Source of the DNA: Selenomonadaceae bacterium
GTDB taxonomy: Bacteria > Bacillota > Negativicutes > Selenomonadales > Selenomonadaceae
DNA length: 47,449 nucleotides
NCBI GenBank assembly: GCA_017535925.1
Contig: JAFXTD010000060.1
Span: 1 to 47,449 of the forward strand
Direction of reading: 5' to 3'
Each line of letters starts with the position of its first letter. Position 1 is the first letter of the stretch. Shown piece by piece: positions 1-17,170 of this stretch. The position numbers were made by a program, and so were the translations under genes. The notes below the pieces were generated by a model. It worked only from the letters and a program-made list of their open reading frames with translations, was not told the DNA's origin and searched no databases.

Positions 1-494
1 AACTTGATAATCTTCGCCGTGAAAAAAATTCCGTCGAGGGTGAACGCGAACGTTTGAAGTCTGAACTTGATAATCTTCGCCGTGAAAAAAATTCCGTCGA
101 GGGTGAACGCGAACGTTTGAAGTCTGAACTTGATAATCTTCGCAACGGAAAAAATTCCGTCGAGGATGAGCGTAATCGTTTGAAGTCTGAGCTTGAAAAT
201 CTTCGCCGCGAAAAAAATTCCGTCGAGGGTGAACGCGAACGTTTGAAGTCTGAACTTGAAAACCTTCGCAATGAAAAAAATTCCGTCGAGGGTGAACGCG
301 ACCGTTTGAAGTCTGAGCTTGAAAATCTTCGCCGCGAAAAAAATTCCGTCGAGGATGAACGCGAGCGTTTGAAGTCTGAACTTGATAACCTTCGCAACGA
401 AAAAAATTCCGTCGAAGGCGAGCGCGAACGTTTGAAGTCTGAACTTGAAAATCTTCGCAATGAAAAAAATTCCGTCGAGAGTGAACGCGACAAC
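1..494 (+). repeat. 63-bp in-frame tandem repeat, about 8 units
   Basis: Units begin at 54, 117, 180, 243, 306, 369 and 432, with a partial unit before 54 and a diverged one at 495. The period is exactly 63 bp, so unit gain or loss keeps the frame. Nucleotide identity between units is very high, including synonymous sites, which points to recent slippage or recombination. The array continues past the left window edge. Confidence 0.95.
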
Positions 495-935
495 TTGAAG
501 AATCAGCTTGCCGAAAGATTCCCCGAAGGTTGGGAGATTTATCGGAAATTTTTGCGTATCGATTCGGCAACACGCCAAAATTCCGGTCTCTACACGGAAA
601 ACTTTGCATCGTTCATTTGCAGCGGCGCGCAGATGAAACGCCTTGAAAATATTTGGGACGCGGCACTTGACAGCAAACGCGAAAGAAACTTCGACGAGGC
701 AGAAATTTTTTGGGAAGTCTTTAAATATTGTGTTCGACTTGTCAACGCCGCGCAGGGCGATAAAGTCATTGAGTTGCTCAATACGCAAATCGGCGAAGGT
801 TACACCTCCGACAAACACTCAACCGGCGGAACGAACAGCACGGCTCAAGGCGTCGTTCGCGAAATAAATCTTGCCGGCTATCGAAACAATATCAGCAAAA
901 AAATTGTCAGGAAAAGCAACGTTCGGGTGGGGTGA
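1..935 (+). CDS. Coiled-coil protein with 21-residue tandem repeats, 5' partial
   Basis: The frame is open from the window edge, so the start lies upstream; the TTG at 54 is only a repeat-internal leucine codon. Residues up to about nucleotide 494 are near-identical 21-residue units (type LKSELDNLRREKNSVEGERE), three heptads each with Leu/Val at core positions, predicting a long charged coiled coil. Units alternate irregularly between LRRE and LRNE versions. The last about 145 residues are non-repetitive and probably globular (aromatic-rich, begins near ERFPEGWEIYRKF). The stop is 4 nt before the ATG of the next gene, whose ribosome-binding site lies in this gene's end, so it belongs to the downstream Hsp70-like/HerA operon. 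No family is recognised; a scaffold or partner of the adjacent ATPases is inference. Confidence 0.85.
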   Translation, partial: LDNLRREKNSVEGERERLKSELDNLRREKNSVEGERERLKSELDNLRNGKNSVEDERNRLKSELENLRREKNSVEGERERLKSELENLRNEKNSVEGERDRLKSELENLRREKNSVEDERERLKSELDNLRNEKNSVEGERERLKSELENLRNEKNSVESERDNLKNQLAERFPEGWEIYRKFLRIDSATRQNSGLYTENFASFICSGAQMKRLENIWDAALDSKRERNFDEAEIFWEVFKYCVRLVNAAQGDKVIELLNTQIGEGYTSDKHSTGGTNSTAQGVVREINLAGYRNNISKKIVRKSNVRVG

Positions 936-939
936 GCTG

Positions 940-3870
940 ATGGGATTGTTGAAGACAAAATCCGTTCGTGAAGTCTGCCTCTCGCGAAGTCGTCTCTTCA
1001 AAGGCAATGTCCAAGAAATTATCGGCGCGGCTCAAGAATCACTTGCCGAATTCAAAAATTATGTTGAGAAACTTTGCGCGTTGCTTGACAATCGCTTTTT
1101 ATTTTTCAAGCAAGATGTTTGGTATGATTCGTTGACGAATTTGTTGTTGCCGAAGTTCGATAAAAATTTTTGTCCGTTGCTTACGCTTGAAGAATTTTCC
1201 GCGCTCATTGAAGGCAAACATAAGGAAGATTTTTTTTTGACATTCGCGGGTTTCAAAGGTCGTTGCATTTCCGCCGAAGAATGCAAAGAAATTTTCACGG
1301 GCAAAGCAAATCATTATCCTCACGCGCCGGGCAATCGTCGTCCGCGTTTTTTTATTGACGGCAGGGAAGTCACGGCAAGCTGTCTTTATACTCAAATGTC
1401 TTGGTCGACGAAAGATTTCGGCTCGGACAAAGCGCGCAGTGTCTTTTCCGTTGCCGGCGGAAAAAATTATTTTTGCGTTGAAAAGACGGGTCAGTTTGTC
1501 GAATATTTCGGCTCGGCAAGTCGTGTTTGCGGCTCGAATCCTTCGAAAAGCGCGGTGCTGATTCCCGTTTGCAACTTGCCGCTTGAAAATAAATTCGACA
1601 AAAAAATCGCGGCGGCTTGTGCTCTGCTTGAGGCGGGTCTTGTCCCGAAAGATTTTGACAGCGACAACGCCGATAAACTTCGCAAGCAGTATTCGCAGAT
1701 GAAAAATTATTTGTCGTTTGACGGAAGAAATTTTCAACTCGACACGGAGGCTTGGCAGGCGGCGGCGAATCGTCTTGAAAATTTCGGCGGAGAGGTCGAT
1801 ACTAATCTCTTGAAAAAATTTTTCTTGGAGTGCGACACGCGACGCGCAAACCTCACGCCTTATCCCGAAAGATTTTTGACTGATTCGGAGGCGGGGCATT
1901 GGGAACTTCACGAGGAAAAATTTTTCCCTGCCGACGATGATTTGATAACTTTGCCGATTAATGAAGAATGGTACATGCGCGACCCGAAACTCGACGTGAA
2001 AACGAGCGGCGTCTGCGCGATTGACTTCGGCACGAAAAGCACTGTGGCTGTTTGCCTCGACGACGGGAAAAAACTTTTGCGAATCGGGCGCGGCGACTTG
2101 GAAAAAGAACCTTCGCCGAACGATTACGAAAATCCGACGGTCATTGAGTTACGCGATTATGTTTCGTTCGCGCAGGCTTATCAAATTAAAGACGGGCGAC
2201 CTTTCACGGAATGGGAACAGTTGACGGTTTCGCACGAGGCTTTGAATCGACTTTTGGACAGCGAAGACAGGCAGGTTGCTCAAAGTATTTTCGGCGAGCT
2301 CAAGCAGTGGGCGAATCGACGCAACGGAATTATTCGCTTGCAAGACCGAAGCGGCAAAGATATTTTTTTGTACCCTTACGACACCTTGAGCAAGGGCGAC
2401 CTCGACCCGATTGAACTTTACGCCTATTATCTCGGTCTTTACATCAACAGCATGTACAACGGAATTTATCTCGAATACATTTTGTCGTTCCCCGTCAAGT
2501 ACAAACAATCTGTCCGCGAAAAAATTTTGCAAAGTTTTGAACGCGGCTTGAAAAAATCTTTGCCCGAATCAATTTTGAATGACGAGGCTTTGATGAAAAA
2601 TTTTTCGGTTTATGCCGGAGCAAGTGAACCGGCGGCTTATGCGGTCTGTGCTCTTCGCGAATTGGAACGTGCAAAAAAAATTTCTCGCCCGACGGAAAAG
2701 GAGCCGATTTATTTTGCGGTCTTCGACTTCGGAGGCGGCACTACCGATTTTGATTTCGGACTTTGGCGGTTGCCGAACGACGACGACAAAAAAGGTTTCA
2801 ATGACGTTATCGAACACTTCGCCGCCGAAAGTGACAGCGGGCTCGGCGGAGAAAAATTATTGAACCTTATAGCCTACGAGGTCTACAAAAATAATTTGAG
2901 CTTGATGCGTGAAAATGCAATTCCGTTTTCTCTGCCCGAAGGTTGCAAGCCGTTTGACGGTGCGGAATTTTTGTTGAGTGATTCGCTTGCCGCAAATTTA
3001 AATCGCCGTCGCTTGAGTGATAAGTTGCGCCCGATTTGGGAGGAATGGGACGACTTCGAATCAATCGACGACGAGCCTTTGACGATTACGCTTTTCAAAG
3101 AGCACGGGAAAAAATCTTTGGACTTGATAATTTCGGTTGAGGAACTTCGCGATGTTTTGAGCAAACGAATTTTGCGCGGCGTCGAGAATTTTTTTTGCGC
3201 ACTTCGCAGAGCTTTTCTCAATCGCCCGATTCAAGCCTGCCACATTTTGACGGCTGGCAACTCTTGCAAGTCGAAACTTCTGCAAAAAATTTTTCACGAG
3301 GAAATGATTCGTCAACGCCAAATTTTTTTCGAGGAACTTTTTCAAAAGACGGGTCGCTTGCCCGATATGATTAATTTCATTTTGCATGAGCCAATCGGTT
3401 CCGAAAAATCTTTATCGAATTACGAACGAATCCCGACGGGTAAAAGCGGCGTTGCTTTCGGCTTGCTTGATTGTCGACGCGGCGGCAACGACGTTTTGAT
3501 TGTCGACAAGAATTTTTCAAACGAGGCGGCGAATTTTTATTTCCACCTCGGCACGCAAGACGGGCACGGCGATTTCAAAATCGTGATTCCTCGCGAAGAC
3601 AACGACGGCACTTGGAAAAAATTTCTCTACGTGACAGAAGACAAATTCGATATTTTCTTCACGGACGAGCCGCGCGCTTTCGGCGGGAAAATTCCAATCG
3701 GGGAGGTCGAAAGAATTTCTTGCCGCATAAATTTTTTGAATCACGCCACTCAAGGTCAGCTTTTCATTCGCAAGACCGCGCCCGATAAAATTGAATACGT
3801 CGTCGCCGAAACGGATGACGCGCCAAAATTTTTTCTGTCGAAGGTTGCATTTGTCAATCTTAACGATTAA
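940..3870 (+). CDS. Hsp70/actin-fold ATPase with large N-terminal extension (copy A)
   Basis: About 976 residues. An uncharacterised N-terminal region of about 355 residues precedes an Hsp70-like ATPase domain: phosphate-1 motif CAIDFGTKSTVAVC near residue 357, phosphate-2 motif VFDFGGGTTDFDFG near 592, adenosine motif ILTAGNSCKS near 768. The protein is much longer than DnaK (about 630) and no classic substrate-binding domain is evident. The ATG at 940 is preferred because GGGTGGGGTGAG lies just upstream; the frame is also open back to a TTG at 871, which would overlap the previous gene by 65 nt. It is a clear paralogue of the next gene, sharing blocks such as DPIELYAYYLGLYIN and FERGLKKSLP. 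The ATPase fold is well supported; client and role are unknown. An accessory chaperone or assembly ATPase is inference. Confidence 0.85.
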   Translation: MGLLKTKSVREVCLSRSRLFKGNVQEIIGAAQESLAEFKNYVEKLCALLDNRFLFFKQDVWYDSLTNLLLPKFDKNFCPLLTLEEFSALIEGKHKEDFFLTFAGFKGRCISAEECKEIFTGKANHYPHAPGNRRPRFFIDGREVTASCLYTQMSWSTKDFGSDKARSVFSVAGGKNYFCVEKTGQFVEYFGSASRVCGSNPSKSAVLIPVCNLPLENKFDKKIAAACALLEAGLVPKDFDSDNADKLRKQYSQMKNYLSFDGRNFQLDTEAWQAAANRLENFGGEVDTNLLKKFFLECDTRRANLTPYPERFLTDSEAGHWELHEEKFFPADDDLITLPINEEWYMRDPKLDVKTSGVCAIDFGTKSTVAVCLDDGKKLLRIGRGDLEKEPSPNDYENPTVIELRDYVSFAQAYQIKDGRPFTEWEQLTVSHEALNRLLDSEDRQVAQSIFGELKQWANRRNGIIRLQDRSGKDIFLYPYDTLSKGDLDPIELYAYYLGLYINSMYNGIYLEYILSFPVKYKQSVREKILQSFERGLKKSLPESILNDEALMKNFSVYAGASEPAAYAVCALRELERAKKISRPTEKEPIYFAVFDFGGGTTDFDFGLWRLPNDDDKKGFNDVIEHFAAESDSGLGGEKLLNLIAYEVYKNNLSLMRENAIPFSLPEGCKPFDGAEFLLSDSLAANLNRRRLSDKLRPIWEEWDDFESIDDEPLTITLFKEHGKKSLDLIISVEELRDVLSKRILRGVENFFCALRRAFLNRPIQACHILTAGNSCKSKLLQKIFHEEMIRQRQIFFEELFQKTGRLPDMINFILHEPIGSEKSLSNYERIPTGKSGVAFGLLDCRRGGNDVLIVDKNFSNEAANFYFHLGTQDGHGDFKIVIPREDNDGTWKKFLYVTEDKFDIFFTDEPRAFGGKIPIGEVERISCRINFLNHATQGQLFIRKTAPDKIEYVVAETDDAPKFFLSKVAFVNLND

Positions 3871-3906
3871 AATTTTTCAGATTGTTCAAAGAGAGGAGAT
3901 TTTTTT

Positions 3907-6900
3907 ATGGGTGGATTTTCGCAAAGACTTGAAAGAGAATTGACCATGGATTCTCAAAACGACAAACCAAAAGATATTACCTTGCCTTGTTACAAAGTGG
4001 CTTTGAGGCATTCGGCTAAAAATTTTTCACCCGCCGAAGAGAAACGCGAAGTCGCTCAACCGCAAATCATTTCTTTGGAAGAATTTGAATCTTACATTTC
4101 CTTCGCGCTTGATGAGCTTGAGCAATTCAAAGACGCGCCCTTCGTCATGTTCGAAAATAAAAAAGTTTGGTTCGACAGAAAGACGGCAGGAATTTTCCCG
4201 CGCTTCGAGGCTGTCGAGTTGCCGAGCTTCCCTACAAGAGGTCGTCCGCTTGCAAATTTGCCGGGCTGGGATTTCGAAGGCTTTACCTTTTTGCCCATGA
4301 CGCCCGAAGAATTTTTAAAGAGTTTTATTGTCGGGCAAAACAATCCTTACATTGACGACGACGGCTTATTCCGCCACTTCCCCACCAAACTCAAGAGAAA
4401 TATTTTGGTTATCGGTTGGAAGAATAACAAGTCCCTTTGCATGAACACGAGCGGCATCGAAAATTATTGGGCGGACGGCGACAAGGTTACGATGGTTCCG
4501 ATTTACAGATTGAACGGCATGAACGCTACCAAAATGTGGCACGGAGAGGCTGTTCGCGCTTGGCTTGCAAACGAACTGATTCCCGAAGGTCTTTCGCCCG
4601 AAGCAAAGAAGGCTTACGTCTTCTTCATGAAAATTTTCCCCGACGTTCGACACTACACGAAAAATTCCGTTCGCAAATGCACCTTCGACTTCAAATCTTT
4701 TTATGCAAACGTCAAAAACGGCACGATTGATTTCAAAGCTTTGGTTGAAAAAGGTCTCGGCGTGAAAAATTCTTTGCCGAAGGTCAACGCCAAGATTGCC
4801 GCTCCCGAAAATCCGATTGACCGCGTCCGCTTGGAACTTTGCCATTGTGATTCCGTTCGTGCAAATATCGTGGCTTATGACGAAAAAATTTTGACAGACC
4901 CTAAAGGCGGGCATTGGGAATTGTTCGAGCCTTTGCCGCAAGACGCAGAGATTATCGAACTTCCCAAGAACGAACCGTTTTTCGGAAGACCGCCTCACAT
5001 GGATGTTAAAGACGGCATTGTCGCCATTGACTTCGGGACAAAATCGACGGTTGTCGTTCGGCGTGTCGGTGTCGACGAAAAACTTTTGCGCGTCGGCGAG
5101 GGCGATTATTCCAAAGCTCCCGAAAAGAAAGATTACGAAAATCCTACCGTCGTTGAGCTGCGCGATTACGAATCTTTCAAGGAAGCTTATCGCGCTCGTT
5201 CAGGCAGACCTTTCACCGAATGGGAACAGGCTCGTTTTTCACACACCGCAGCCGCCGTACTCAATGACGCCGAAAAAGATACGAGCATTGACGCTTCCGT
5301 TTTCTATTCCGTTTTCAGTGAGCTCAAGCAGTGGGCGAACGATAAAGATTTGCACATGTATCTGCAGGACAGAAAAAAGAATCTCGTTGAGCTCAAGCCT
5401 TATCTTCAACTTAGCGAAGACGACTTCGACCCGATTGAACTTTACGCTTATTATCTCGGACTTTATATCAACAACATGCACACGGGCATTTGTTTGGAGT
5501 ACATGTTTTCGTTCCCCGTCACTTATGAAATTGCTGTTCGCGAAAAAATTCTGCAAAGCTTTGAACGCGGTTTGAAAAAATCTTTGCCGCCTTCCATTTT
5601 GAACGACGCCGATATGATGAAAAGATTTAAAATTTCCTTCGGAGCACCGGAACCCGTCGCCTATGCAAGCTGTGCTCTCGGCGAATTGAATTTACAACCG
5701 AAAAAGCTCGGCGAGAAAGTTGCTTATGCCGTGTTTGATTTCGGAGGCGGCACCACCGATTTTGATTTCGGAATTATGAGCATCCCCGAAAAAGGGCGTT
5801 CCAAATTTGTGATTACTCAATGCGAAAACGTCGGGCGCGGCGACCCTTACTTGGGCGGCGAAAACCTCCTCAATCTTATCGCCTATGAAGTCTACAAAAA
5901 AAATCTTTCCAAGATGCGCGAGAAACAAATTCCTTTTGCCCTGCCTTACGAATGCAAAGCGGTTGCCGGCGGCGATACGATTATCCTGACGACGAAAGAG
6001 GCTTACGTCAATCGCAAACGCATTGCGGAATTTTTGCGCCCGTTCTGGGAAGAAAACGTCGACGAGAGCAACGAGCTTTTCGAGACCAAGCAGAAGATAA
6101 AACTTTATTCCAAGACGGAAAATAAAATTATCGCAGTCGATTTGCAACTGGACAGACAGCGACTGGAAGATTGCTTGACCGAGAGAATTCGTCGCGGAGC
6201 AGATAATTTCTTCGAGGCAATGATTGCCGCTTTCAAAAATCCCGAAACTCTTCCGATTCATATTTTGCTTGCGGGCAATTCCTGCAAGTCCTCAATCGTT
6301 CGAAAACTTTTTGAAGAAAAAATTCTTGAAAAGGAATTGGAGCTTGAAGAAATAATCGGCGGCGACAAAAAAGTTTCCAACGTCTTTGAATTGCACATGC
6401 CGCTTGGCTTCGACCCCGACGAGGAAAATAAAAAGGCTGCCAAGATTCACGACGCGGACGAAGACACTTCCGAAATTGTCGAAAGTCAAGATTACGAACG
6501 CCTTCGCACGGGCAAAACCGGTGTGGCTTTCGGGCTCATACGTTGTCGAAAAGGCGGACGCGATGTCGTGATTGAAGGAGCCAAAAAAGGAGCGGGAGCG
6601 GAGGCACCTTTCCTGTACTATATCGGCGAAAGTGACAACGACCGTTTCAAAATTAAAGTCGACCTCGATGTTCCGCGCAAAGTATGGACTGAATTCACCT
6701 ACGCCGATTTGGATACGTTTGAAATTTTCTACACGAAAGAAGCGGCGGCAACTTCAATAAAAGAAGTCAATGTTGTCAGATGCAATTTGGATGAAGAAGA
6801 CGTGAGCGAAGAGGACGATGTCTTTGTTTATATTCGCAAGGTCGGTTCCGATACGATAGAATATGCGGTCGGCAGAGCGGAAGATTTTGTCGGCGAAGAC

Positions 6901-6939
6901 TTCGGCGGAAAAATTTATTCAAAGAGACTGCAAGACTGA
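3907..6939 (+). CDS. Hsp70/actin-fold ATPase with large N-terminal extension (copy B)
   Basis: 1010 residues, starting at ATG behind GAGAGGAGA. It has the same architecture as the preceding gene: an N-terminal module of about 365 residues with the shared landmark GGHWEL near its end, phosphate-1 motif VAIDFGTKSTVVV near residue 370, phosphate-2 motif VFDFGGGTTDFDFG near 606, adenosine motif ILLAGNSCKSS near 788. It differs from copy A by an acidic insert (about residues 835-860, rich in Asp/Glu/Lys) and an acidic C-terminal stretch around EEDVSEEDD. The gap to copy A is 36 nt and to the HerA-like gene 14 nt, so the three are very likely co-transcribed. Tandem duplication followed by divergence is the simplest origin. 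Two different paralogues may act as a heteromer; that is inference. Confidence 0.85.
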   Translation: MGGFSQRLERELTMDSQNDKPKDITLPCYKVALRHSAKNFSPAEEKREVAQPQIISLEEFESYISFALDELEQFKDAPFVMFENKKVWFDRKTAGIFPRFEAVELPSFPTRGRPLANLPGWDFEGFTFLPMTPEEFLKSFIVGQNNPYIDDDGLFRHFPTKLKRNILVIGWKNNKSLCMNTSGIENYWADGDKVTMVPIYRLNGMNATKMWHGEAVRAWLANELIPEGLSPEAKKAYVFFMKIFPDVRHYTKNSVRKCTFDFKSFYANVKNGTIDFKALVEKGLGVKNSLPKVNAKIAAPENPIDRVRLELCHCDSVRANIVAYDEKILTDPKGGHWELFEPLPQDAEIIELPKNEPFFGRPPHMDVKDGIVAIDFGTKSTVVVRRVGVDEKLLRVGEGDYSKAPEKKDYENPTVVELRDYESFKEAYRARSGRPFTEWEQARFSHTAAAVLNDAEKDTSIDASVFYSVFSELKQWANDKDLHMYLQDRKKNLVELKPYLQLSEDDFDPIELYAYYLGLYINNMHTGICLEYMFSFPVTYEIAVREKILQSFERGLKKSLPPSILNDADMMKRFKISFGAPEPVAYASCALGELNLQPKKLGEKVAYAVFDFGGGTTDFDFGIMSIPEKGRSKFVITQCENVGRGDPYLGGENLLNLIAYEVYKKNLSKMREKQIPFALPYECKAVAGGDTIILTTKEAYVNRKRIAEFLRPFWEENVDESNELFETKQKIKLYSKTENKIIAVDLQLDRQRLEDCLTERIRRGADNFFEAMIAAFKNPETLPIHILLAGNSCKSSIVRKLFEEKILEKELELEEIIGGDKKVSNVFELHMPLGFDPDEENKKAAKIHDADEDTSEIVESQDYERLRTGKTGVAFGLIRCRKGGRDVVIEGAKKGAGAEAPFLYYIGESDNDRFKIKVDLDVPRKVWTEFTYADLDTFEIFYTKEAAATSIKEVNVVRCNLDEEDVSEEDDVFVYIRKVGSDTIEYAVGRAEDFVGEDFGGKIYSKRLQD

Positions 6940-6953: not shown

Positions 6954-9900
6954 ATGCAGGATATGAACGCGGCGATTGAAAAAGGACGAACGCTGATAAA
7001 ATATCTTTCCGAACAATCGCGTGAAAAAATTTTTGACGGCGAACGAAAAATGCTCGGCACGGAAAGAGAGCTTGCGCTCAAAGAATGTTCATTGTTTCAA
7101 ATAGAAGAATTGACTTTCGAGGAAAAAGCCCCGCGGCGCGAGGCAATGGAAAATATTTTGGGCACCTTCCGCGACTTGGAAGGCGTGAGTTTTATTTATT
7201 TGATATTGGGCAACGGTCAGGACGTAAATTTTTATTTCGGAGTGGCAAAAGATTTTTCACATGACAAGCCCGAAAATCTTTCCGCACCGACAATCGGCAA
7301 TGACCTTCTAAAGCCCGGCATACAAGGAAATTTTCGCGGCTGTCAAATTCGAGAGTTGAGCAACGAGGACAAACGAGCGGTACTGCAACGGCTGAAAAAA
7401 AATTCATGCGCGGGCATATTGACGGGCGTACCGGGGAGCAAAAAAGATAACGAAAATTTTCAAGGCGTCGACAGATTGATAAACGTCATGTCAGGCGACG
7501 AATTCGGCTTCATGGTGATAGCGCGCCCGCTTGCCGAAACGGAGCTTAATGAACTTGAAGACGTTTTGATTGAAATTGCCGATACCTTATCGCCGACAGT
7601 TCGTCATTCACTTCAACGCACAAAAAGCGAAGGCACTTCCAAAAATTCAAGCACAACCGCGAGCACAGGAACGCAAATAAGCGAATCGAATCAGGAGAGC
7701 GAAAACACTTCCGCAGGCAAGACCACTTCGACAAGCCACAGCGAACAGAAAAATTTTTCCAATCAGCAACAGGCGACGGCAGGGCAAACTTCGGGCAGGC
7801 AACACAGCATAAACAGCACCTTCAACCGCAACGAACGCGACGCCACGAACAAAAACCTCATGACGAAAAAAGAAAACGGCGTCGTGAAAGAATCGAAAGA
7901 CGAAAATGATTCTGTGGAAAGGAGCGGCGGCAATTCGGCGGGCGCGAATTATTCCGAACAAAATCAAAGTTCCTACGTCTTCGGCTGTCAAATATCCTCA
8001 ACCGACACCACGACGAATTCAACTCAACAAAACGAAAGCTTGAGCCAAAGTTCCGCAAAAAATTTTTCGGAGAGTGTCACGGATAACAAGAGCGATTCGA
8101 CTTCGAAAACACAATCGACAAACACGCTTGAAGTTGAGCAAACGGAACTTGAGACCAAGACCGCCGCGCAGTGGTTGAAATATCTTGACGAAGTTTTATT
8201 TCCTCGTCTCGACAGCGGCAGAGGCAAGGGAATTTTTTTGTCTTGCGCATATCTTTTCGCCGCACAACCCGCCATGCTTAGACGCCTCGCCAACACAGCG
8301 ATTTCACTTTACAGCGGAGCGAAGGGCAATAAAATTCCGTTGACGTTCAGAGAAATTTCTGCGGCAGAGGCAAATTGTCTTCATGCGCTTGAAAATATGC
8401 AAATACCCGCGTTTGTGAATTCGGCGGCGGAAAAATATTCGGCGGCGTTGTCAAGATTGCAGACGTGCGGCATAAGTTATTTCGGGAATTGGATTTCGGT
8501 CGAGGAGTTGAGCATAATCGCGGCACTTCCGCAAAAAGAAATACCGGGACTTGCCCTGCGCGAGGAAGTCGAATTCGGCTTGAACATTACGCCCGTTGCC
8601 GACGAATTTAAAATTCCGCTGGGTCATCTTGTTCAAGACGGCACGGAACGAAAAATGCCCGTATGCTTGGACAGACGCGCGCTCAACAAGCACACGTTCA
8701 TTACGGGCGTCACGGGCAGCGGCAAAACGACGACTTGTCAAAATATTTTAATCAACAGCGGCTTGCCATTCTTGGTCATTGAGCCGGCAAAGACAGAGTA
8801 TCGAATTTTGAAAGAGCGTTGCCCCGAACTTATTTTTTTTACGCCGGGCAAACAGAATATCGCGCCGTTCTTTTTGAATCCTTTTGAACTTTTCCCCGAC
8901 GAAGCGATAACGGGGCGTGCCGATATGATTAAGGCAACCCTTGAGGCGTCTTTCGATATGGAGGCGGCTATCCCGCAAATTTTGGAGACAGCGGTTTATC
9001 GCGCTTACGAGGAAAAAGGCTGGGACATCCGCACGAACGAATGGCGACCGAATATCAACGGCAATGACGAGCCGCGCAATCCTTTTGAAAAAGGCGTTTA
9101 TCCTTTCCCGACCATGTCCGATTTTTGGGCGGCAGTCAAGAAAGTCACGGCGGAAGAAGGTTTCGGTCAACGTCTTCAAGATGAATACATGGGCTCACTC
9201 AAAGCGCGCATTGAAAGTCTTTTAATCGGAGCAAAGGGCATGATGCTTGACACGCCGCGTTCGATAAATTTTTTTGATTTGGTTGAGCGTAAAGTCGTGA
9301 TTGAACTTGAAGAAATAAAAAACGGCGCGGAAAAATCTTTGCTTATGGGTTTTATCCTCACGAATCTTTTGCAAGCAGTTCAAGCGTTGCACAGAAAAAA
9401 TCCCGCCTTCCAACACATAACGCTAATCGAAGAGGCGCACCGACTTTTAAGCCGCTACGTGCCCGGCGACAGCATGAACAAGAAGCAAGGCGTGGAAGTC
9501 TTCGCCGATATGTTGGCGGAGGTTCGCAAATACGGAGAATCGCTGATTATCGTCGACCAAATCCCCGATAAGATGACGCCCGAAGTTTTGAAGAACACCA
9601 ACACCAAAATTGTGCACAAACTTTTTGCCCGCGACGACAAGGACGCCATCGGCGATACGATTGCTCTTTCCGACGAACAAAAAACTTTTCTGTCGAAGTT
9701 GCCGACGGGCAGGGCGATTATTTTTTCTCAAGGTCAAGTCAAAGCAATGCAAGTTAAAATCACCAAAGAGGCAAACACTTCCGAACGCGAAATTGAGCCT
9801 GAAGAAATTCGTGCCGTTGCCGAAAATTATTATTCCGAGCCGAAAGTTATCGCGGGCGGTGTCTTGCGCGGCATTGAACATTTCCCCGCGACAATTTCAA

Positions 9901-10223
9901 AAGAGGTTGTCTGCCAATATCTTTGGATTATGCGCGGCGGCTTTTCTCTTCGAAAAAAATATCGCGAAATGTTCAAGGACACTTCGCAAGACGCTTTGAA
10001 AATTTTTCGTCGAGAAATTGAACACGTCGAAAAAAATGTTGTCCGTGACGTTTGGCAAACGTGGCTTTTTTGCAATGTCTACGAAAATTATTCGGCGCAG
10101 GCTTTTGAAATTTTCCGTGCCCTTGTCGAAAAAATTTTGTCAGCCGAAAGTGAAGAAGACTTCGAGGCGGCGGAGCTGAATATTCAACGTGAAGCTATGG
10201 GCTTTTTGAGATTGAAGAATTGA
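6954..10223 (+). CDS. HerA/DUF87-type P-loop ATPase with Ser/Asn/Thr/Gln-rich insert
   Basis: 1089 residues. Walker A TGVTGSGKTTT near residue 588 and Walker B ITLIEEAHRLL near 825 fit the HerA/FtsK-like additional-strand ATPases. The segment DKMTPEVLKNTNTKIVHKLF and the later LPTGRAIIFSQGQ are typical of the DUF87/HerA core, where such motors translocate DNA or protein. Residues 1-220 form a separate N-terminal domain with a possible regulatory fold. Residues about 225-400 are low complexity, dominated by Ser, Asn, Thr and Gln, which is unusual inside a motor ATPase. The C-terminal about 100 residues are helical. Starts at ATG after TGAGGAAAAA, 14 nt behind Hsp70-like copy B. No nuclease (NurA-like) partner is seen, so DNA processing is not shown. 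A membrane- or DNA-associated motor is inference. Confidence 0.85.
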   Translation: MQDMNAAIEKGRTLIKYLSEQSREKIFDGERKMLGTERELALKECSLFQIEELTFEEKAPRREAMENILGTFRDLEGVSFIYLILGNGQDVNFYFGVAKDFSHDKPENLSAPTIGNDLLKPGIQGNFRGCQIRELSNEDKRAVLQRLKKNSCAGILTGVPGSKKDNENFQGVDRLINVMSGDEFGFMVIARPLAETELNELEDVLIEIADTLSPTVRHSLQRTKSEGTSKNSSTTASTGTQISESNQESENTSAGKTTSTSHSEQKNFSNQQQATAGQTSGRQHSINSTFNRNERDATNKNLMTKKENGVVKESKDENDSVERSGGNSAGANYSEQNQSSYVFGCQISSTDTTTNSTQQNESLSQSSAKNFSESVTDNKSDSTSKTQSTNTLEVEQTELETKTAAQWLKYLDEVLFPRLDSGRGKGIFLSCAYLFAAQPAMLRRLANTAISLYSGAKGNKIPLTFREISAAEANCLHALENMQIPAFVNSAAEKYSAALSRLQTCGISYFGNWISVEELSIIAALPQKEIPGLALREEVEFGLNITPVADEFKIPLGHLVQDGTERKMPVCLDRRALNKHTFITGVTGSGKTTTCQNILINSGLPFLVIEPAKTEYRILKERCPELIFFTPGKQNIAPFFLNPFELFPDEAITGRADMIKATLEASFDMEAAIPQILETAVYRAYEEKGWDIRTNEWRPNINGNDEPRNPFEKGVYPFPTMSDFWAAVKKVTAEEGFGQRLQDEYMGSLKARIESLLIGAKGMMLDTPRSINFFDLVERKVVIELEEIKNGAEKSLLMGFILTNLLQAVQALHRKNPAFQHITLIEEAHRLLSRYVPGDSMNKKQGVEVFADMLAEVRKYGESLIIVDQIPDKMTPEVLKNTNTKIVHKLFARDDKDAIGDTIALSDEQKTFLSKLPTGRAIIFSQGQVKAMQVKITKEANTSEREIEPEEIRAVAENYYSEPKVIAGGVLRGIEHFPATISKEVVCQYLWIMRGGFSLRKKYREMFKDTSQDALKIFRREIEHVEKNVVRDVWQTWLFCNVYENYSAQAFEIFRALVEKILSAESEEDFEAAELNIQREAMGFLRLKN

Positions 10224-10235
10224 GGAGGAATCACC

Positions 10236-11180
10236 GTGGGCTTTTTGGGAAGTTTCTTTGGCGGTATCGCGAGCGGTATCGGGAAAATTTGCAGCGGCAT
10301 TTCGTCGGCAGTGACCGGCGCGATTGGTGCTATCAGTTCTTTGGCAAGCAAAGCCGTCACGTCATTTTTGGGCACGATAGCCGGTAAGGCAACGGGTTTT
10401 CTGAAAGTCGTAAGCGGAATCATGACGGGTCCGCTCGGTCCGATTCTTGCTCCCATTGTCGTCGATTTGCTTGTTAAGTTGGTCGTGAAAGTAATTTCGA
10501 AAATCGCGGAAGAAAATGAAGTCGTCGAAAAAAATGAACGCCCCGAAGAAATCGGCTATCGAATGGAGGAAGCCGACAAGCACGAGGATTGGAAGCGGCG
10601 CGATGAATTTAAATCTTTCAAAGAGTATTACGCCTACTTGAAGGAGCAAATTCCCGCCGAAGAAATCGACCGCATACACCTGCAAAAAAATTTCGGCGCG
10701 TATTGCGTCTTGGGCATGCAGGCTGAAGTTCAAGCTTTGGAAGAAAAAATCGGCTTGCGCATTCCCAAAGCTTCTCTTGTGGAAATCGGACGCAGTGCAA
10801 TGGAATTCAAGGAAGTGCAAGCTTTCATTCGCGCCTTCGAGGCGGCGGGCTATACAAATTTGAACATCAGCGAATATCTGAAAGGCACCTTGCCTGCAGG
10901 CGAATTGGAACGCATAACCGTTGCCGTACTTGACGCTTTGAAATTTTATTTCCCCGAAAAAACTGAACGCGATTTGCTGACACGGCTCAACGAAATGCGG
11001 CGCGCTTCCGAAGACGATAAAGTTTTGCTTGCGGTTTACAAAGAGGACTTGCAAAAAGAATACGGCGAGCAACTTCAAGAAGCCTCTCAAAGCGGCGAAC
11101 TTCCGAAGGACACCGAAAAAATTTTGGCGGAAGTCGACTTCAAGGCACCCGAAAATTCAAAAATTGAGGCGGCGAAATGA
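10236..11180 (+). CDS. Protein with glycine-rich hydrophobic N-terminus and soluble C-terminal domain
   Basis: 314 residues, GTG start with GGAGGAA 8 nt upstream; 12 nt after the HerA-like stop. Residues 1-90 are unusually rich in Gly, Ala, Ser, Ile, Val and nearly free of acidic residues (begins MGFLGSFFGGIASGIGK, later GPLGPILAPIVVDLLVKLVV). This looks like a membrane-inserting or glycine-zipper segment rather than a cleavable signal peptide. Residues 95-314 are charged and soluble, with a helical pattern. The stop overlaps the next start (ATGA). No family is recognised. The composition is compatible with a membrane anchor for the neighbouring ATPases or with a pore-forming effector; the sequence alone does not decide. 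Confidence 0.75.
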   Translation: MGFLGSFFGGIASGIGKICSGISSAVTGAIGAISSLASKAVTSFLGTIAGKATGFLKVVSGIMTGPLGPILAPIVVDLLVKLVVKVISKIAEENEVVEKNERPEEIGYRMEEADKHEDWKRRDEFKSFKEYYAYLKEQIPAEEIDRIHLQKNFGAYCVLGMQAEVQALEEKIGLRIPKASLVEIGRSAMEFKEVQAFIRAFEAAGYTNLNISEYLKGTLPAGELERITVAVLDALKFYFPEKTERDLLTRLNEMRRASEDDKVLLAVYKEDLQKEYGEQLQEASQSGELPKDTEKILAEVDFKAPENSKIEAAK

Positions 11181-11578
11181 ACGGCAGGAAGTTTGAAAAT
11201 CTTCGGCAAAAAATTTTGTCCATGCAATTCATAAAGTCAAAGTCATGCGAGCCGGCGGCGGAATTCGATTCGATAAAAAATTTGGAAAGTGCAATTCAAG
11301 CGGCGATACGTGAAATTGAATCCGAGCGGCGAGAAATTGAACGGGAAATTTCCGCCTTGAAGAAACCGACCGCCGAGCCTTTGGAAATGTTTTCCTTCCC
11401 CGAACCCTTGCCGCAAGAGGCAAAAAAAATTTTGGCACGACAAGAAAAAATTTTACAACGAATTGCCGCCGAACAATCGGAAGCAGAAAAAAATTTCAAC
11501 GCGCGAAAAAAATCCTTCGCCGAAAAAAAATCCGAGCTGCAACAAAAATTTCTTCGGCGCAAGACGGAGAGAAGGTGA
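11177..11578 (+). CDS. Small coiled-coil protein
   Basis: 133 residues; ATG overlaps the upstream stop as ATGA, a mark of translational coupling. The sequence is strongly helical and charged, with segments such as REIESERREIEREISALKK and a Lys/Glu-rich C-terminus; a proline-rich break (about residues 72-80) separates two predicted coils. No catalytic motif is present. It ends with GTGA overlap into the next gene. An adaptor or structural subunit of the operon's complex is inference. Confidence 0.7.
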   Translation: MNGRKFENLRQKILSMQFIKSKSCEPAAEFDSIKNLESAIQAAIREIESERREIEREISALKKPTAEPLEMFSFPEPLPQEAKKILARQEKILQRIAAEQSEAEKNFNARKKSFAEKKSELQQKFLRRKTERR

Positions 11579-12153
11579 AGATTTTGTCGAGAAAAGAAAT
11601 TTACAAATACGTTGTCGAATGCATTGACGCGCAAACGATTAAAACTTATTCATATGAGGCAGAAAATTTCGTTGTGTTGCGGTTGCACGGCGGCGAGCTG
11701 TATAAATTGAACGCGGCTGATTTTGCCGATTATTGGCGGCAATGGAAGCAGGAGACGGGTCACACCGACGAGGACTTGACTGACATTTGCATTATCTTCC
11801 GCGAAGGTTTTGACATAGAAAAATTTTTTCAAACGGGGAAGGAAGCTTGCGCGCAAACCGTTTCGCCGACTAATTGGACTTGCACGGAGGTAAAAAAGTT
11901 TTTTGAGTTCACGGGTCGACAACTCAAATCGAATATGAATCTTGTCAAGGCGACGGACGGAAAAAAATTTTTAATCAGCACCTTGGATAAGCCGTGCCCT
12001 GCGCTGAACAAGCCCGATTCAAAGAGCAACACGAGTGCACAACCGAAAAAACCTAAGCCGTCCGCCGAGAAAAAAATTTTGGCGACCCGCGAGGAAATTT
12101 TTACCGCCTTCGCGAAAATGAGCAACGAGCATTCAACCAAGAGGAGAGATTGA
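11575..12153 (+). CDS. Unrecognised small protein of the Hsp70-like/HerA operon
   Basis: 192 residues; GTG start overlaps the previous stop (GTGA). Residues 1-140 appear globular, with an aromatic-rich patch (YSYEAENFVVLRLHGGELYKL, then DFADYWRQWKQ). A disordered Lys/Pro/Ser linker (about 143-167) leads to a short C-terminal helix ending KRRD. No known motif was found. The 3' end carries the GAGGAGAG ribosome-binding site of the dynamin-like gene, so the genes are coupled. Confidence 0.7.
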   Translation: MKILSRKEIYKYVVECIDAQTIKTYSYEAENFVVLRLHGGELYKLNAADFADYWRQWKQETGHTDEDLTDICIIFREGFDIEKFFQTGKEACAQTVSPTNWTCTEVKKFFEFTGRQLKSNMNLVKATDGKKFLISTLDKPCPALNKPDSKSNTSAQPKKPKPSAEKKILATREEIFTAFAKMSNEHSTKRRD

Positions 12154-12156
12154 TTG

Positions 12157-14553
12157 ATGTCTGAAAATCTTAACGCCGAGCAACAAAAATTCATTGAGAA
12201 ATTGGAAGAGACCGACAAGATTTTTGAAGAAATTCTTTCGAAAGACCCGAACGGGATGATTCGACGAATTGATTCGATTGAGGGAACGCAATCAGAGAGT
12301 TTTATTCACGGTTGCGGTTGTCGGCTTGGAAAAGGCAGGCAAATCGACACCGGGCAATGCGCTTCTCAAGAGAAATTTTTTGCCCGAATACTCGACGCGT
12401 TGCTCCTACACTACCACAAAAATCTGCGCGTCCTACAACACAGAAGGATTCAAAAATATTTTCGCTGACACGCTTAAAACGATTCTTCTATATCCGCACA
12501 ATCCCGACTTCGACACAATGGACTTGGGGACTTTCGGCAGGTGGTGGGATTCCATAGCAGATAAGAATCCCGCTTTTTATAAAGAGCATAATAAAAGAAC
12601 AGCCTCCGATATAAAAAACATGTTGCAGGACAGAGATACTATTCGCTATTTACTCGCTCAAGTCCCAAAAGATTTTTACGGTGACGAACTCGAAACCAAC
12701 GATTTTAAAATTTACATAACGGGCATTAAAGGTCAGCTTACCAATAAATCGACATTTCGTACCGGTCTTCCCTATGCCGTTGTAATTGTTATATTTGTAT
12801 CGGCTTTTTTGGGCACAATGAATGATATTGTCCTTTACGACGTACCCGGCTTTAATTCGCCGACCGAACTGCATGAAAAGCAAACGCTGGAAATGTTGCG
12901 CGAGGCTGACGCGATAATTTTGGTTACCAATGACGGAACAACGCAGAATGTTGAAAGGTCACAGCTGACGATTTTGAGGAGCGGACGCGACGAGGAAAAT
13001 ATTCCTTTGAGCGATAAAGCTTTTGTTTTCGGAAATCAAATCGACCGCGCCAACAGTTTTGAAGAGGCTGAAATAAACGCCGCCGAATAAAAAAAAGATT
13101 CTCCGGAAAATAATATTGCGAAAGACAATCAAATTTTCGTCGGCACGGCAAGAGCTTATCTTGAAAGTCTCGGAATTACGCCCGCAGCAACCAAGCAGAA
13201 TCAAGACAAAGACGGCACAAAATCTTCTCAAGAAACAATGAACGGCGGGCAAATGTCTTTCGGTATCGACGAGCTTTGGAGCAGCATGACCGCTTATTAC
13301 AACAACGACCGCTTCAGAGTTTTGAAACGCCGCGCAGAAAACACAATCGCCGACGCAAAAAATTTTTTCGACGCTATTTTGAAAAAGTACGAATCCGCGC
13401 AGTGGCAACTTATCCGGAGGCAAAAGACCTTTTAAGAACCTTTAAGCGCGCGGCTTATCATATCGCCGTAAGTCACAACGACAGAATCAGCAAAACGCAA
13501 CCTTTCAGCCAAATGATTCGTGACAAGTTGGAAAGCTTGAGTCGGAATTGCTCGTTAAAGTCAAAAGCGAAGGCGACATTTCCGGCACGGGTCAACTTCC
13601 CCTTTCAAAAATAGACGCAACTTTCCGCGAAGATTTGGAACGGGAATTGTCACGGAGGAAGAGGAGCAAAAAATTTATCCGGAAATTACCGAAAAATTTC
13701 TTGAAGTCATGGGCATGCCCGCCGATTCGCCTCACAAGGAAGAACTTATCGAAAGCGTCACCGAGCTTTTCAATTCGCTGTGGATAAAAAATGCCGACAA
13801 ATGCCGTTTCAATTCTCTTGTCGAAAGATTCACTTCGGGCTTGATGGAGGCTCTTATCCGCCGACCTTTGTCTTCAACTGATTATCCGCGACGAATCTTG
13901 CGACTTATTACGAAAATTGACCGTGAAAGTCGTTACACCGATTTTTTTGCGAAGATTTTCTTGCACGACAATGTTTCGGCGAATTTGGAAATGGCGGGCA
14001 GTCTGAAAAAATTTTTGCCGGCAAACAGGGAAGTCATAAGCGCGGGTATTTCTTTTGCCGTCGAGGCTCTTCCTTTCGGCAAGTGGGCGAAAATGCTTTT
14101 GCGTGCTTGAACGGGAACGAACGCGAAAATCGCTTGAAAGAAATTATAGAATCCTATTCGGCTGAAAATTCAAGTTTCGCGGGAAGATTGACGCGTGAAA
14201 AACTTCAGAAGATGCACGAGCTTAGCCGCCAAACGGAAATAAGTTCCGAAGAAGACATGTTGCAAATTCTAAACGAGGATATTGAAATTCTGCGCGAATT
14301 CACCCGCGAGGCGATTATCTATGCAATCAGCTTGGAGCGGGCGTTCATTTCCGTGATGACCAAAAACATAAATATCATTCGCAACGAGGAAGAGACCAAA
14401 GAGAGCCGAAAAATTTTCAACAAGTGGATTCAAGACAACATCCGCAAGATAATGGAAAAAGAATTTATCGGGCTTGACCAACGAAATCTTGAGAATCAGA
14501 CAAAGAAAAATATCGTCGAGACCGTTCGCAAAGTCGTTGATAAATTGAATTGA
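12157..14553 (+). pseudogene. Dynamin-like GTPase, disrupted by several frameshifts and a stop
   Basis: Begins at ATG 12157 behind GAGGAGAG. The coding signal moves through all three frames: frame change at about 12280-12300, in-frame TAA at 13088-13090, then further frame changes near 13390-13400, 13540-13560, 13640 and 14085-14105. Read across the breaks, it gives about 790 residues with G1 motif VAVVGLEKAGKST, switch-like VLYDVPGFNSP (DxxG), a possible G4 near GNQIDRA, and a long helical C-terminal half ending VRKVVDKLN. That is the layout of bacterial dynamin-like proteins, which remodel membranes. Six separate lesions make programmed frameshifting very unlikely. The residue after the P-loop is Pro (GKSTP), also uncommon. 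It was presumably once the active partner of the next gene. Confidence 0.85.
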
Positions 14554-14572
14554 GGCGAGGAAGTGACTGTTC

Positions 14573-17170
14573 ATGAATTTTGCGTCTTGGAATGAAAAAA
14601 ATTTCGTTGCCGTTGCCGAAGAAGACTTGCGCGAAAATTTTGAGACCGTTGCCGCTTACATAAGTGCCAATCCCGCCAAAGTTTATCTGTTGCCCGCGTC
14701 GGACTTGTGCGCCCGCGAAGAATTGTCGGACGTTCGATTTGCTCTTGAAATTGAATTTCCTTGCCCCGCGACTTTAATCACTGCCTCGAAAAAATTTATC
14801 GTCAACACTTTGTCCGAAATGTTGGAGCTTGCGTCGGAAGAAAATTTTTTAATCGTGCCCGAAAATTTTTCCGATACGGCAAATGCAATTCGTCGACAAT
14901 GTTTTTTGTTGCAAGTGCCGATTAAAATTTGTTCGGAAAAAGATTTTGCCGCACTTGCCGCCGAACAAAAACTGCGCGAACATGAAGAATCTTTGCTCAA
15001 AGAACTTGCCGTTGCCAAAAAATTTTTCGACGGGAAATCCGAATTGAAGTTGGCGGAAAATATTTCTCTGCTTGAAAATTTTTTTGCGGCGACGGAAAAA
15101 TTGGAACGTCATCTGAAAAGTTCAAACGAGCCGATAAAACTTGCAATCGCGGGCGCAACAAAAGATTTTAAACTTTTTGCGGCGAAAATTATTTCGGAAG
15201 GCTCATACTCGGAGGAACTTCAGACTTGCGACGTTTGTATCTTCGCGGTGAACATTTTGGCTGACGACCTTTCACGAACTGAAAAATTTTTGCGGGCGGT
15301 CAAGTCTTCGCCGAACAAAGACAAAATTATTTTCGCGGCGATTCGTTCCGCCCTGCGCGAACAAGATTCGGCGATAAATCCTTCGCGGAAAATTTTTGAA
15401 CTCACGGAGCTTTTGAACGCGGAAGGTTTCACAAAAAATCTTATCTTCTTCCTCGACGCGCCCGACGTATTCTGTAGCGAAAAAATTTTAACGCTGCTGA
15501 AAAATAACGACGAGCCGCTCACGCCTGAAAGAATCATGGGCGAACTCTCTTTGACGGGGCGCGATGAATTTTTAATCGGTCTTTCGCCGGAAAAATTTTT
15601 CGAGGCGCAACCTGTCCAATCGAGTGAAACTTTGCTAAAAAAATCCGGAATTGCCTGCCTTGAAAATTATTTGCGTTCGGCGGGACAAAAAAATTTCGCG
15701 GAGGAAAATTTATTCGGCGAAGTCAACGAGGCGTTTTCGTTCCTCGCGGAGAATTCTTTGAAAAAAATTCGCCTGCACCAAATGCAAAAACTTGTCGAGG
15801 CACTTCACCGAGCCGAGAATTCTCACGAAAAAATTTTGTTGATTGCGGCGCAAGGAAAAATCCTTCAAGAAGAAACGACAATCAAGGCGATTCTCTTCGA
15901 CGCTGACTTCGCGATAAAAAATTTCGTTCGCTCTCTTGAGGAAAAAATTTTTGCGGCTTTTGAAAAGTTGGTCACGGCGGAAGAATTTTCTTCGGAAAAA
16001 CTTGCCGCATTGCATTCGGGAAAAACTTCTTCGGAGCTGAAAAAGTTGGTCGACGACGCGGAAAAAAATATTTCGGCGGAATATTCACGGCTCGCGAAAA
16101 TTTTTTTGGACGCAATGGCAAAGATAATCGAAACTCATCTGGCGCGGGCGAAAAAATTTTTGGATATGACAAAGACAAATCCGCCGCTGCCCGAAGTAAA
16201 AAATTTTTCCTTGCCGAATTTTGATACGGGCTTGACCGAAAATTTTTCACGCGAAAATTTGATAAATCTCATAAACATTTGCACGAAAATTTTTTGTGTC
16301 GAGGAAGCCGCCGATACTTGGGACGAGTTTAAAGCCGAGCGCGCCCGCCTGCTCAAGCGGCTTTATCTTTCGGGGACTTTTCGAAAAAATTTGCGCCGTA
16401 ATTTGGAAGAAACCGCCCGCGAAAAATTGAGCGACCTTGAAAAAATTTTGCGGAAGAATTTTTTTGAGGCACTCGTCGAATATTTCGGGCAGGTATCAAA
16501 AATCTGCAAGGCGCAACAAAATTTTTGCCTGAACACTTTCCGCAAGCAAGTCGAGGATATTTGCGGGCAGACGGATTTTTTGATTCGGGACTTTGCAATA
16601 ATGGAGACGATAACTTCCGCGCTTAAGGAACTTCATGCGACTTGGCGATTAATTTTCACGACGGAAAGTGTTTCGCAGCCCGTCGACGAAAAATTTTTGG
16701 CGGCTCTTTCAGCCGAAATAATCGAACGAAAAAATTTGTTGGTTCGCATGAAAGAGGATTTGAACACTGCAGACGCGGCGGACTTCTCTTTCAAAAAATT
16801 TTTGCCGCACGAAACGCCCGAAGTTTCAAAAGTCTCGTTGGCGGAGGAAAATTTTTCTGCCGCAAAGAGAGCTTTCCGCAACAAGAAATACGAAAACGCC
16901 TTCAAGCTTTTTTCGCAGGCGGCGGTAGCGGGTCACGTCGAAGCACTCAAATATTTGGCTTACATGAATCAAAATGCTTTGGGCACGCCGAAAAATATTT
17001 ATCGGGCGATTGAAAAATTTTTTGACGCCTTCCGTCTCGGCGATGTTATTTCCGCAGGCGAAATTGCAGAACTTTGTTTGGAGTTGAAGTGTTTCTCTCA
17101 TGCTATGGAATTCTATCAGACGGCAGCCGACGGCGGTGACAAATACAGCTCGGACTTTTTGGAAAGTTGA
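14573..17170 (+). CDS. Dynamin-like protein without a P-loop, with Sel1-like C-terminus
   Basis: 865 residues, ATG start after GGCGAGGAAG, 19 nt behind the broken dynamin-like gene. Residues 1-190 are an unrecognised alpha/beta domain. Near residue 190 a GTPase-like strand begins, KLAIAGATKDFKLFA, but the GxxxxGKS P-loop is missing, so GTP binding is doubtful. Long amphipathic helices with many Phe/Lys/Glu follow (about 330-750), resembling dynamin middle/effector regions. The last about 100 residues contain Sel1/TPR-like repeats (AFKLFSQAAVAGHVEALKYL, then AMEFYQTAADGGDKYSSDFL), a protein-interaction module. It is intact despite the decay next to it. Identification as a degenerate dynamin paralogue rests on context and pattern, not on a motif, so it is moderate. 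Confidence 0.65.
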   Translation: MNFASWNEKNFVAVAEEDLRENFETVAAYISANPAKVYLLPASDLCAREELSDVRFALEIEFPCPATLITASKKFIVNTLSEMLELASEENFLIVPENFSDTANAIRRQCFLLQVPIKICSEKDFAALAAEQKLREHEESLLKELAVAKKFFDGKSELKLAENISLLENFFAATEKLERHLKSSNEPIKLAIAGATKDFKLFAAKIISEGSYSEELQTCDVCIFAVNILADDLSRTEKFLRAVKSSPNKDKIIFAAIRSALREQDSAINPSRKIFELTELLNAEGFTKNLIFFLDAPDVFCSEKILTLLKNNDEPLTPERIMGELSLTGRDEFLIGLSPEKFFEAQPVQSSETLLKKSGIACLENYLRSAGQKNFAEENLFGEVNEAFSFLAENSLKKIRLHQMQKLVEALHRAENSHEKILLIAAQGKILQEETTIKAILFDADFAIKNFVRSLEEKIFAAFEKLVTAEEFSSEKLAALHSGKTSSELKKLVDDAEKNISAEYSRLAKIFLDAMAKIIETHLARAKKFLDMTKTNPPLPEVKNFSLPNFDTGLTENFSRENLINLINICTKIFCVEEAADTWDEFKAERARLLKRLYLSGTFRKNLRRNLEETAREKLSDLEKILRKNFFEALVEYFGQVSKICKAQQNFCLNTFRKQVEDICGQTDFLIRDFAIMETITSALKELHATWRLIFTTESVSQPVDEKFLAALSAEIIERKNLLVRMKEDLNTADAADFSFKKFLPHETPEVSKVSLAEENFSAAKRAFRNKKYENAFKLFSQAAVAGHVEALKYLAYMNQNALGTPKNIYRAIEKFFDAFRLGDVISAGEIAELCLELKCFSHAMEFYQTAADGGDKYSSDFLES

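What the first reader, a model, noticed from the sequence alone, without database searches (positions are those of the whole stretch)
1..17170. Possible undescribed system: coiled coil, two Hsp70-like ATPases, HerA-type motor, membrane-active protein, paired dynamin-like proteins
Nine genes lie on one strand with gaps of 4-36 nt or overlapping start/stop codons, ending at one terminator. The mix joins two Hsp70/actin-fold ATPases with unknown N-terminal modules, a HerA/DUF87 ATPase, a protein with a hydrophobic Gly-rich N-terminus, small coiled-coil proteins and a dynamin pair. Each family occurs in membrane remodelling, conflict or secretion contexts, but I do not recognise this combination as a named system. 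Membrane defence, envelope stress repair or assembly of a large surface machine are all possible; this is inference.
Basis: partly seen in the sequence, partly recalled or inferred. Interest (0 to 1): 0.85.

Follow-up and report, generated by a model that had tools for sequence, protein, structure and literature searches.

The report
Undescribed Hsp70-GrpE-HerA membrane gene system
A gut bacterium carries a conserved set of genes that joins a chaperone engine, a ring-shaped motor and a membrane-type protein, here followed by membrane-shaping dynamins; the same core recurs in distant bacteria, matched no described system in our searches, and may be a new kind of defence or transport machine.

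Summary
The gene set is real, with corrections. Gene 1 is cut by the contig start and gene 8 (dynamin 1) is broken. The operon probably continues upstream on contig C48 (exact 140-bp overlap). Gene 1, called a coiled coil, ends in a GrpE-like domain: profile match 94.7 against at most 1.1 in controls, and GrpE fills the first 11 fold-search hits. The Hsp70-like proteins have an Hsp70 ATPase domain but no detectable substrate-binding domain. A core of GrpE-like, Hsp70-like, HerA and gene 5 recurs in Negativicutes, Bacilli, Clostridia and, rearranged, in a zetaproteobacterium and a Campylobacteraceae; gene 5 follows HerA at 25 of 25 assessable places. The dynamin pair is a clade-specific addition; HerA, a gene-5 homologue and another dynamin meet again in a second operon without Hsp70. 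Gene 5 is patchy (strong hits in 8 of 60 genomes of the genus, own included). WYL regulators lie near 5 loci. Best reading: a chaperone-gated HerA machine at the membrane, probably a conflict (anti-phage) system, 0.45; export is the main rival. SrfABC is not supported.

The parts
3..935 (+). gene 1, GrpE-like exchange factor with long repetitive coiled coil; 5' end cut by contig start
   Evidence: C-terminal domain 507-932: hhalign to GrpE 94.7, model pLDDT 93.6, GrpE as first 11 PDB matches
940..3870 (+). gene 2, Hsp70-like ATPase type A
   Evidence: 49 percent identical to type B over its main match; Hsp70 ATPase domain by hhalign 98.5 over 326 columns
3907..6939 (+). gene 3, Hsp70-like ATPase type B
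   Evidence: alignment A5 with conserved phosphate and adenosine motifs (motif names recalled); hhalign
6954..10223 (+). gene 4, HerA-family ring ATPase with own N-terminal domain and Ser-rich linker
   Evidence: DUF87 1.3e-5, over cut-off; PDB HerA profiles; Walker A GVTGSGKTTT kept in all 15 rows
10236..11180 (+). gene 5, helical protein with hydrophobic Gly/Ala/Ser-rich N-terminus
   Evidence: model pLDDT 85, all helical, residues 1-50 low confidence; hydropathy; weak tape-measure similarity 5.8e-4
11177..11578 (+). gene 6, small coiled-coil protein
   Evidence: orthologues in L028, L030, L035
11575..12153 (+). gene 7, small protein of unknown fold, conserved next to gene 5
   Evidence: profile hits in part of the loci, 20-row alignment partly chosen by eye; no Pfam family for two orthologues
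12157..14553 (+). gene 8, dynamin 1, broken into several frames
   Evidence: six pieces against intact L028 homologue; that homologue is Dynamin_N 1.3e-14
14573..17170 (+). gene 9, dynamin-2-like protein, degenerate P-loop by eye, Sel1-type repeats at C-terminus
   Evidence: weak Sel1 hit 0.0066, orthologue Sel1 1.2e-6; active-looking relatives are Dynamin_N
17194..17214 (.). terminator-like hairpin after the last gene
   Evidence: pattern scan, both strands; consensus match only

Best explanation
A chaperone-gated HerA machine at the cytoplasmic membrane. An Hsp70-like ATPase, timed by its own GrpE-like exchange factor, binds or senses something through a variable N-terminal module and controls a HerA-family ring ATPase. 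HerA works with gene 5, which inserts hydrophobic helices in the membrane and anchors or forms a channel; the dynamin pair, where present, reshapes or seals that membrane. The most likely role is an accessory conflict (anti-phage or anti-plasmid) system. Shown by computation: family assignments, conserved gene order, GrpE-like fold, helical gene-5 model, patchy distribution. Inferred: physical contact, gating, membrane insertion and the defence role.
For: GrpE-like and Hsp70 domains. Gene 5 follows HerA at 25 of 25 assessable places, the Hsp70-like gene precedes HerA at 23 of 25; in a gene-5-first search 10 of 10 strong hits have HerA upstream and 9 of 10 the Hsp70-like gene before it (eight of these ten are genomes also in the first set). 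Front modules vary: WD40, Lcl_C, biotinyl-lipoyl in three of ten N-termini tested. Dynamins beside HerA in three arrangements. Patchy: strong gene-5 hits in 8 of 60 congeners and 3 of 398 phylum genomes, own included in both. WYL regulators within three genes at 5 loci. PADLOC families in flanks: 29 against 8 in a control of equal size. Plasmid copies with HEPN, integrase or csm6 near.
Against: Many copies lie beside housekeeping genes. The control for flanks was not taxon-matched and families overlap, so 29 against 8 is not a count of proteins. No known effector domain in genes 5-7. No Hsp70-like hit in 50,697 phage records and only 2 plasmid records. Membrane insertion of gene 5 untested; its hydrophobic part is modelled with low confidence at residues 1-50. 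The GrpE match is weak by single sequence: 3 of 28 members, best E 0.036, while one member matches another family better, a PDB profile search found no GrpE, and the fold match has TM-score 0.37.
Confidence: 0.45

Rival explanations
1. An export or injection machine: HerA pumps a protein or DNA cargo through a gene-5 channel, and the Hsp70-like/GrpE-like pair unfolds or loads the cargo.
For: In the same genus the GrpE-like/Hsp70-like pair heads clusters with a VgrG-type OB domain, an AHH nuclease and Imm11; of 16 of 60 genomes with a strong hit of the 734-762 aa candidate sheath, 14 have an Hsp70-like gene within 5 kb (my count). HNH and SMI1/KNR4 genes follow HerA in Exiguobacterium and lie near the Hsp70-like gene in Helicobacter. 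Gene 5 resembles tape-measure segments weakly.
Against: Those clusters lack HerA and gene 5 in the loci shown, and the own genome has no candidate-sheath hit. By eye the core operons show no constant cargo or immunity gene.
Confidence: 0.27
2. A membrane maintenance or stress-repair system: the chaperone pair and dynamins repair envelope damage, HerA recycles complexes.
For: Dynamin pair after the core in the window clade; recalled and listed papers link bacterial dynamins to membrane surveillance (PMC8844932, listing and start of abstract).
Against: The core occurs without dynamins in most of the loci, and it is patchy within the genus.
Confidence: 0.13
3. In this genome the locus is a decaying island: modules brought together and partly pseudogenised.
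For: Dynamin 1 is broken, dynamin 2 lacks a GTPase hit, and the Tad-type genes just downstream look fragmented by eye.
Against: HerA, gene 5 and both Hsp70-like genes are open; the same order B-HerA-5-6-7-dynamin 1-dynamin 2 is in L028, L030, L035 and L159, though dynamin 1 has an inside stop in L030 and HerA is split in L035.
Confidence: 0.1

Closest known systems
GTPase-centric conflict systems with HSP70 and GrpE (Kaur et al. 2020, PMC7159879; passages read)
   Same: NTPase switch proteins with HSP70 and GrpE, predicted to act near the membrane
   Different: the paper's DO-GTPase and GAP1 are the constant parts; here HerA and gene 5 are, and most loci have no GTPase
HerA-based anti-phage systems (PADLOC HerA and mad8 models)
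   Same: HerA-family ATPase; PADLOC mad8 8.7e-27 and HerA models up to 3e-17, PDB HerA structures by profile
   Different: no Sir2, DUF4297 or nuclease partner was hit (partner names recalled); instead GrpE-like, Hsp70-like and gene 5
Bacterial dynamin pairs (LeoBC; paired DLPs, PMC6104087, listing and start of abstract)
   Same: two neighbouring large dynamin-type genes; PADLOC LeoBC 9.1e-8 for a piece of dynamin 1
   Different: second partner degenerate here and with Sel1-type repeats; linked to HerA and Hsp70-like genes
SrfABC
   Same: a long Hsp70-fold protein and a dynamin-type protein in one operon (resemblance recalled)
   Different: no SrfB or SrfC family hit; HerA and gene 5 are extra

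Membership tests
GrpE | C-terminal beta domain after a helical part | tested here: met
   hhalign 94.7 with controls at most 1.1; model and fold search
GrpE | speeds nucleotide release from its Hsp70 | not testable with these tools
   needs biochemistry
Hsp70 | Hsp70 ATPase domain | tested here: met
   hhalign 98.5 over 326 columns
Hsp70 | substrate-binding domain | tested here: not met
   C-terminal 135 columns, probability 0.6 against canonical Hsp70 rows; sequence level only
HerA family | HerA/DUF87 ATPase core | tested here: met
HerA anti-phage systems | effector partner such as Sir2 or a nuclease | tested here: not met
   no such hit
SrfABC | SrfB and SrfC family domains | tested here: not met
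   absent from the Pfam hits of genes 2, 3 and 9 at E up to 0.1 and of the intact dynamin 1 at E up to 0.5
DO-GTPase/GAP1 systems | GAP1 partner | tested here: inconclusive
   no such name among Pfam hits, but I did not check that Pfam holds GAP1 models
Dynamin | Dynamin_N GTPase domain | tested here: inconclusive
   met in the intact homologue of dynamin 1 (1.3e-14); gene 8 here is broken; dynamin 2 has none
Type VI secretion or contractile injection | sheath, tube and baseplate genes | tested here: not met
   none among Pfam hits of the operon; no candidate-sheath hit in the own genome
Anti-phage defence | protection from phage | not testable with these tools
   needs a phage challenge

The most novel reading that the evidence does not exclude
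An undescribed class of bacterial machine in which a dedicated Hsp70-GrpE pair with swappable recognition modules switches a HerA ring that drives a membrane channel (gene 5), with dynamins recruited more than once; it kills or seals infected cells through the membrane. The same chaperone pair was also adopted by an injection-like apparatus, so Hsp70-GrpE pairs would be a general switch for membrane conflict machines.
Probability: 0.35. Interest if true: 0.88.

Novelty: new variant of a known kind. Interest (0 to 1): 0.7.

Why it matters
It gives a defined, portable gene core (four to five genes) found in named Bacilli and Clostridia, so a role of Hsp70-GrpE pairs outside general protein folding can be tested directly. 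If it is defence, it would be a chaperone-controlled route to membrane-level immunity; if export, a HerA-driven transporter.

Tried and rejected
Rejected or not supported: SrfABC. Gene-7-like proteins in the second operon type and on the Acinetobacter plasmid looked alike by eye but gave hhalign 0.3 and 0.2. A shared Lcl_C fold of the Acinetobacter and window N-termini: only the linker before the ATPase matched, probability 28 and 26. Substrate-binding domain at the Hsp70-like C-terminus: no match. Sheath identity of the 734-762 aa protein: not confirmed; labels such as sheath, tube and PAAR are mine. Viral scan with dynamin 2: no relative. Foldseek of the gene-5 model could not be run; the machine was busy at each try.

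Selection before counts: the named-genome scan kept the best 80 of 319 relatives, 79 loci, so taxon lists are from a capped list. For the 25 places I removed repeat loci of one contig (judged by equal contig length), plasmid loci, the second operon type, and three loci where HerA ends the contig. Flank survey: 103 of 108 test proteins from 18 loci were scanned (dropped: two very long ones, L095:972-4655 and L101:4119-8552, and three after gene 5 that I took for gene 7: L095:16558, L101:17206, L118:16297) and 103 of 136 control proteins (33 dropped to match the number: all of L096, L103 and L108, most of L073, four of L113, one of L066). Four of the five WYL loci were seeds of the WYL profile; L058 was found with it.

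Literature: searches listed no paper that I recognised as joining these parts, and one search found none with SrfB, dynamin and Hsp70; that is all that undescribed rests on. PMC7159879: passages only. Other papers named: search listing and start of abstract only.
Full report
Setting. The window is contig C61 of a 2.59-Mb genome in 76 contigs. Relative G016 of the same genus has a contig of 62,947 bases, as has a Selenomonadaceae genome from a goat omasum in the named collection, so I take the host for a rumen Selenomonadaceae; this rests on equal contig length. TamB, Omp85 and MlaD-family genes downstream fit a diderm.

Anatomy. Eight reading frames lie head to tail at 3-17170 with gaps of 4 to 36 nt or 4-nt overlaps, and a broken gene stands before the last. 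Contig C48 ends inside the same coiled-coil gene and shares an exact 140 bp with the window's first bases; the stretch is repetitive, so adjacency is likely, not proven. Reading back through C48 gives a GrpE-like gene (282 aa), a third Hsp70-like gene (1116 aa), a DUF6734 protein (8.9e-14) and a 406-aa protein. The 136-residue N-terminal family of that last protein has eight other non-redundant hits in the loci held, one of them on the Exiguobacterium plasmid that also carries HerA. In G016 the A and C types lie on one contig and B with HerA on another; in G023 and G024 types A and B are neighbours as here.

Gene 1. The C-terminal 142 residues, aligned with 27 homologues, match an alignment of 24 GrpE proteins with probability 94.7 (E 6.4e-8, 47 columns); 12 column shuffles, one reversal and 8 other alignments gave at most 1.1. 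A model of the domain from 27 rows has mean pLDDT 93.6 with five helices then six strands, and its first 11 PDB matches are GrpE, one of them below E 0.001 (9.7e-4, TM-score 0.37). Against: Pfam GrpE matches only 3 of 28 single sequences (best E 0.036; one member hits NanE at 0.0021), and a PDB profile search found no GrpE.

Hsp70-like proteins. The middle part is an Hsp70 ATPase domain (98.5 over 326 columns) and the C-terminal 135 columns show no match to canonical Hsp70 rows. The N-terminal parts of types B and C are homologous (hhalign 100). Of ten N-termini given to Pfam, six had no family, among them both of the window; one has WD40 repeats, one an Lcl_C match (2.3e-7, below its cut-off), one a biotinyl-lipoyl domain, and one a hit at 0.44. 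A changing front end on a constant ATPase suits a sensor or adaptor; this is inference.

HerA and gene 5. Gene 4 is a HerA-family ATPase with an invariant Walker A. In the Hsp70-first loci, after removing copies, 25 places have this HerA with the next gene visible, and gene 5 follows in 25 of 25 (in L035 and L119 HerA is in two pieces); three more end at a contig edge. The Hsp70-like gene stands just before HerA in 23 of 25; the exceptions, a zetaproteobacterium (L107) and a Campylobacteraceae (L119), carry it after gene 5. Starting from gene 5 instead, 14 of 60 genomes of the genus and 5 of 398 of the phylum match at E 0.001, own included. The ten strong ones (E below 1e-70) have HerA directly upstream, 9 of 10 with the Hsp70-like gene before it; eight of these ten genomes are also in the first set, so only G010 and G125 are new cases. 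Gene 5 is modelled as all-helical with pLDDT 85, residues 1-50 poorly. Its N-terminus is hydrophobic and often rich in Gly, Ala and Ser, with 2 to 16 charges in the first 70 residues of 21 homologues, and is weakly like tape-measure segments. Membrane insertion is likely but untested.

Dynamins. In the loci fetched the pair follows the core only in the window's clade (L028, L030, L035, L044 = L159). An intact dynamin 1 is Dynamin_N (1.3e-14). In the window it aligns in six pieces, and in G024 it has an inside stop, so decay happened more than once or assemblies err. Free-standing pairs occur in the genus (L155, L166); their second partners are Dynamin_N and their first partners match the dynamin-1 profile strongly. 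A second operon type was seen in five loci: HerA and a small dynamin in five of five, a gene-5 homologue called in four and, in L157, seen only as the hit; no Hsp70-like gene. In L156 a hexapeptide transferase, a Cys-rich protein and a radical SAM enzyme follow; the dynamin of L158 is Dynamin_N with a zinc ribbon (5.4e-17). An Acinetobacter plasmid joins WYL, HerA, a GrpE-like gene, two Hsp70-like genes, HEPN, a dynamin fragment and an integrase, with no gene 5 recognised. So HerA and dynamins lie together in three different arrangements.

Role. For conflict: patchiness, plasmid copies, WYL regulators within three genes of the core at 5 loci (L055, L058 in two pieces, L074, L118, L123; Pfam WYL checked for L118 only), and more PADLOC families in flanks than in a control (29 against 8 per 103 proteins at E 1e-15; 25 of the 29 shown, among them WYL, AbiEii, JetD and CARF-HEPN). 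By eye AbiEii lies near L074 and JetD near L083. The families overlap and the control is not taxon-matched. Against: many copies sit by housekeeping genes, and genes 5-7 show no known effector. For export: the GrpE-like/Hsp70-like pair heads injection-like clusters with toxin and immunity genes in the same genus, but those loci lack HerA and gene 5.

Novelty. The parts belong to known superfamilies, and a published class of predicted conflict systems already links HSP70, GrpE and GTPases (PMC7159879, passages). The HerA-gene 5 core with a GrpE-Hsp70 pair was not found in the searches listed, so I call it a new variant of a known kind; if the machine is shown to work as one unit, that rating is too low.

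Noticed in passing
L040:2840-17513, L032:6318-18125, L037, L038, L041: Injection-like clusters in the same genus: GrpE-like and Hsp70-like genes followed by a 734-762 aa conserved protein, a VgrG-type OB domain protein and others, in L040 with an AHH nuclease, Imm11 and a canonical Hsp70.
   Followed up: partly
L156:752-9891, L157, L158, L165, L168: Second HerA operon: HerA, gene-5 homologue, small gene, zinc-ribbon dynamin; in L156 also hexapeptide transferase, Cys-rich protein and radical SAM enzyme.
   Followed up: partly
L122:1-21500: Photobacterium plasmid: HerA and a gene-5 homologue (8e-20) behind vWA, PP2C, kinase, AAA and DUF2357 genes, csm6 nearby.
   Followed up: partly
window 17666-24478: Pieces that look by eye like a fragmented Tad-type pilus cluster directly downstream; no family search was run on them.
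   Followed up: no
window 29206-31016: A C-5 cytosine methylase and an Eco47II-type restriction gene between MlaF- and MlaD-type genes.
   Followed up: no
L025:8410-10776 (own contig C31): A shorter solitary Hsp70-like protein (788 aa) beside a gene that reads as adenylosuccinate synthase by eye; similar short forms in many congeners.
   Followed up: no
L170 (own contig C7, 41075-41542): A second protein over the GrpE cut-off (1.6e-11) next to a frame that looks PP2C-like by eye.
   Followed up: no
L107:8969-12007: Zetaproteobacterial Hsp70-like protein whose N-terminal module is a WD40 propeller.
   Followed up: no
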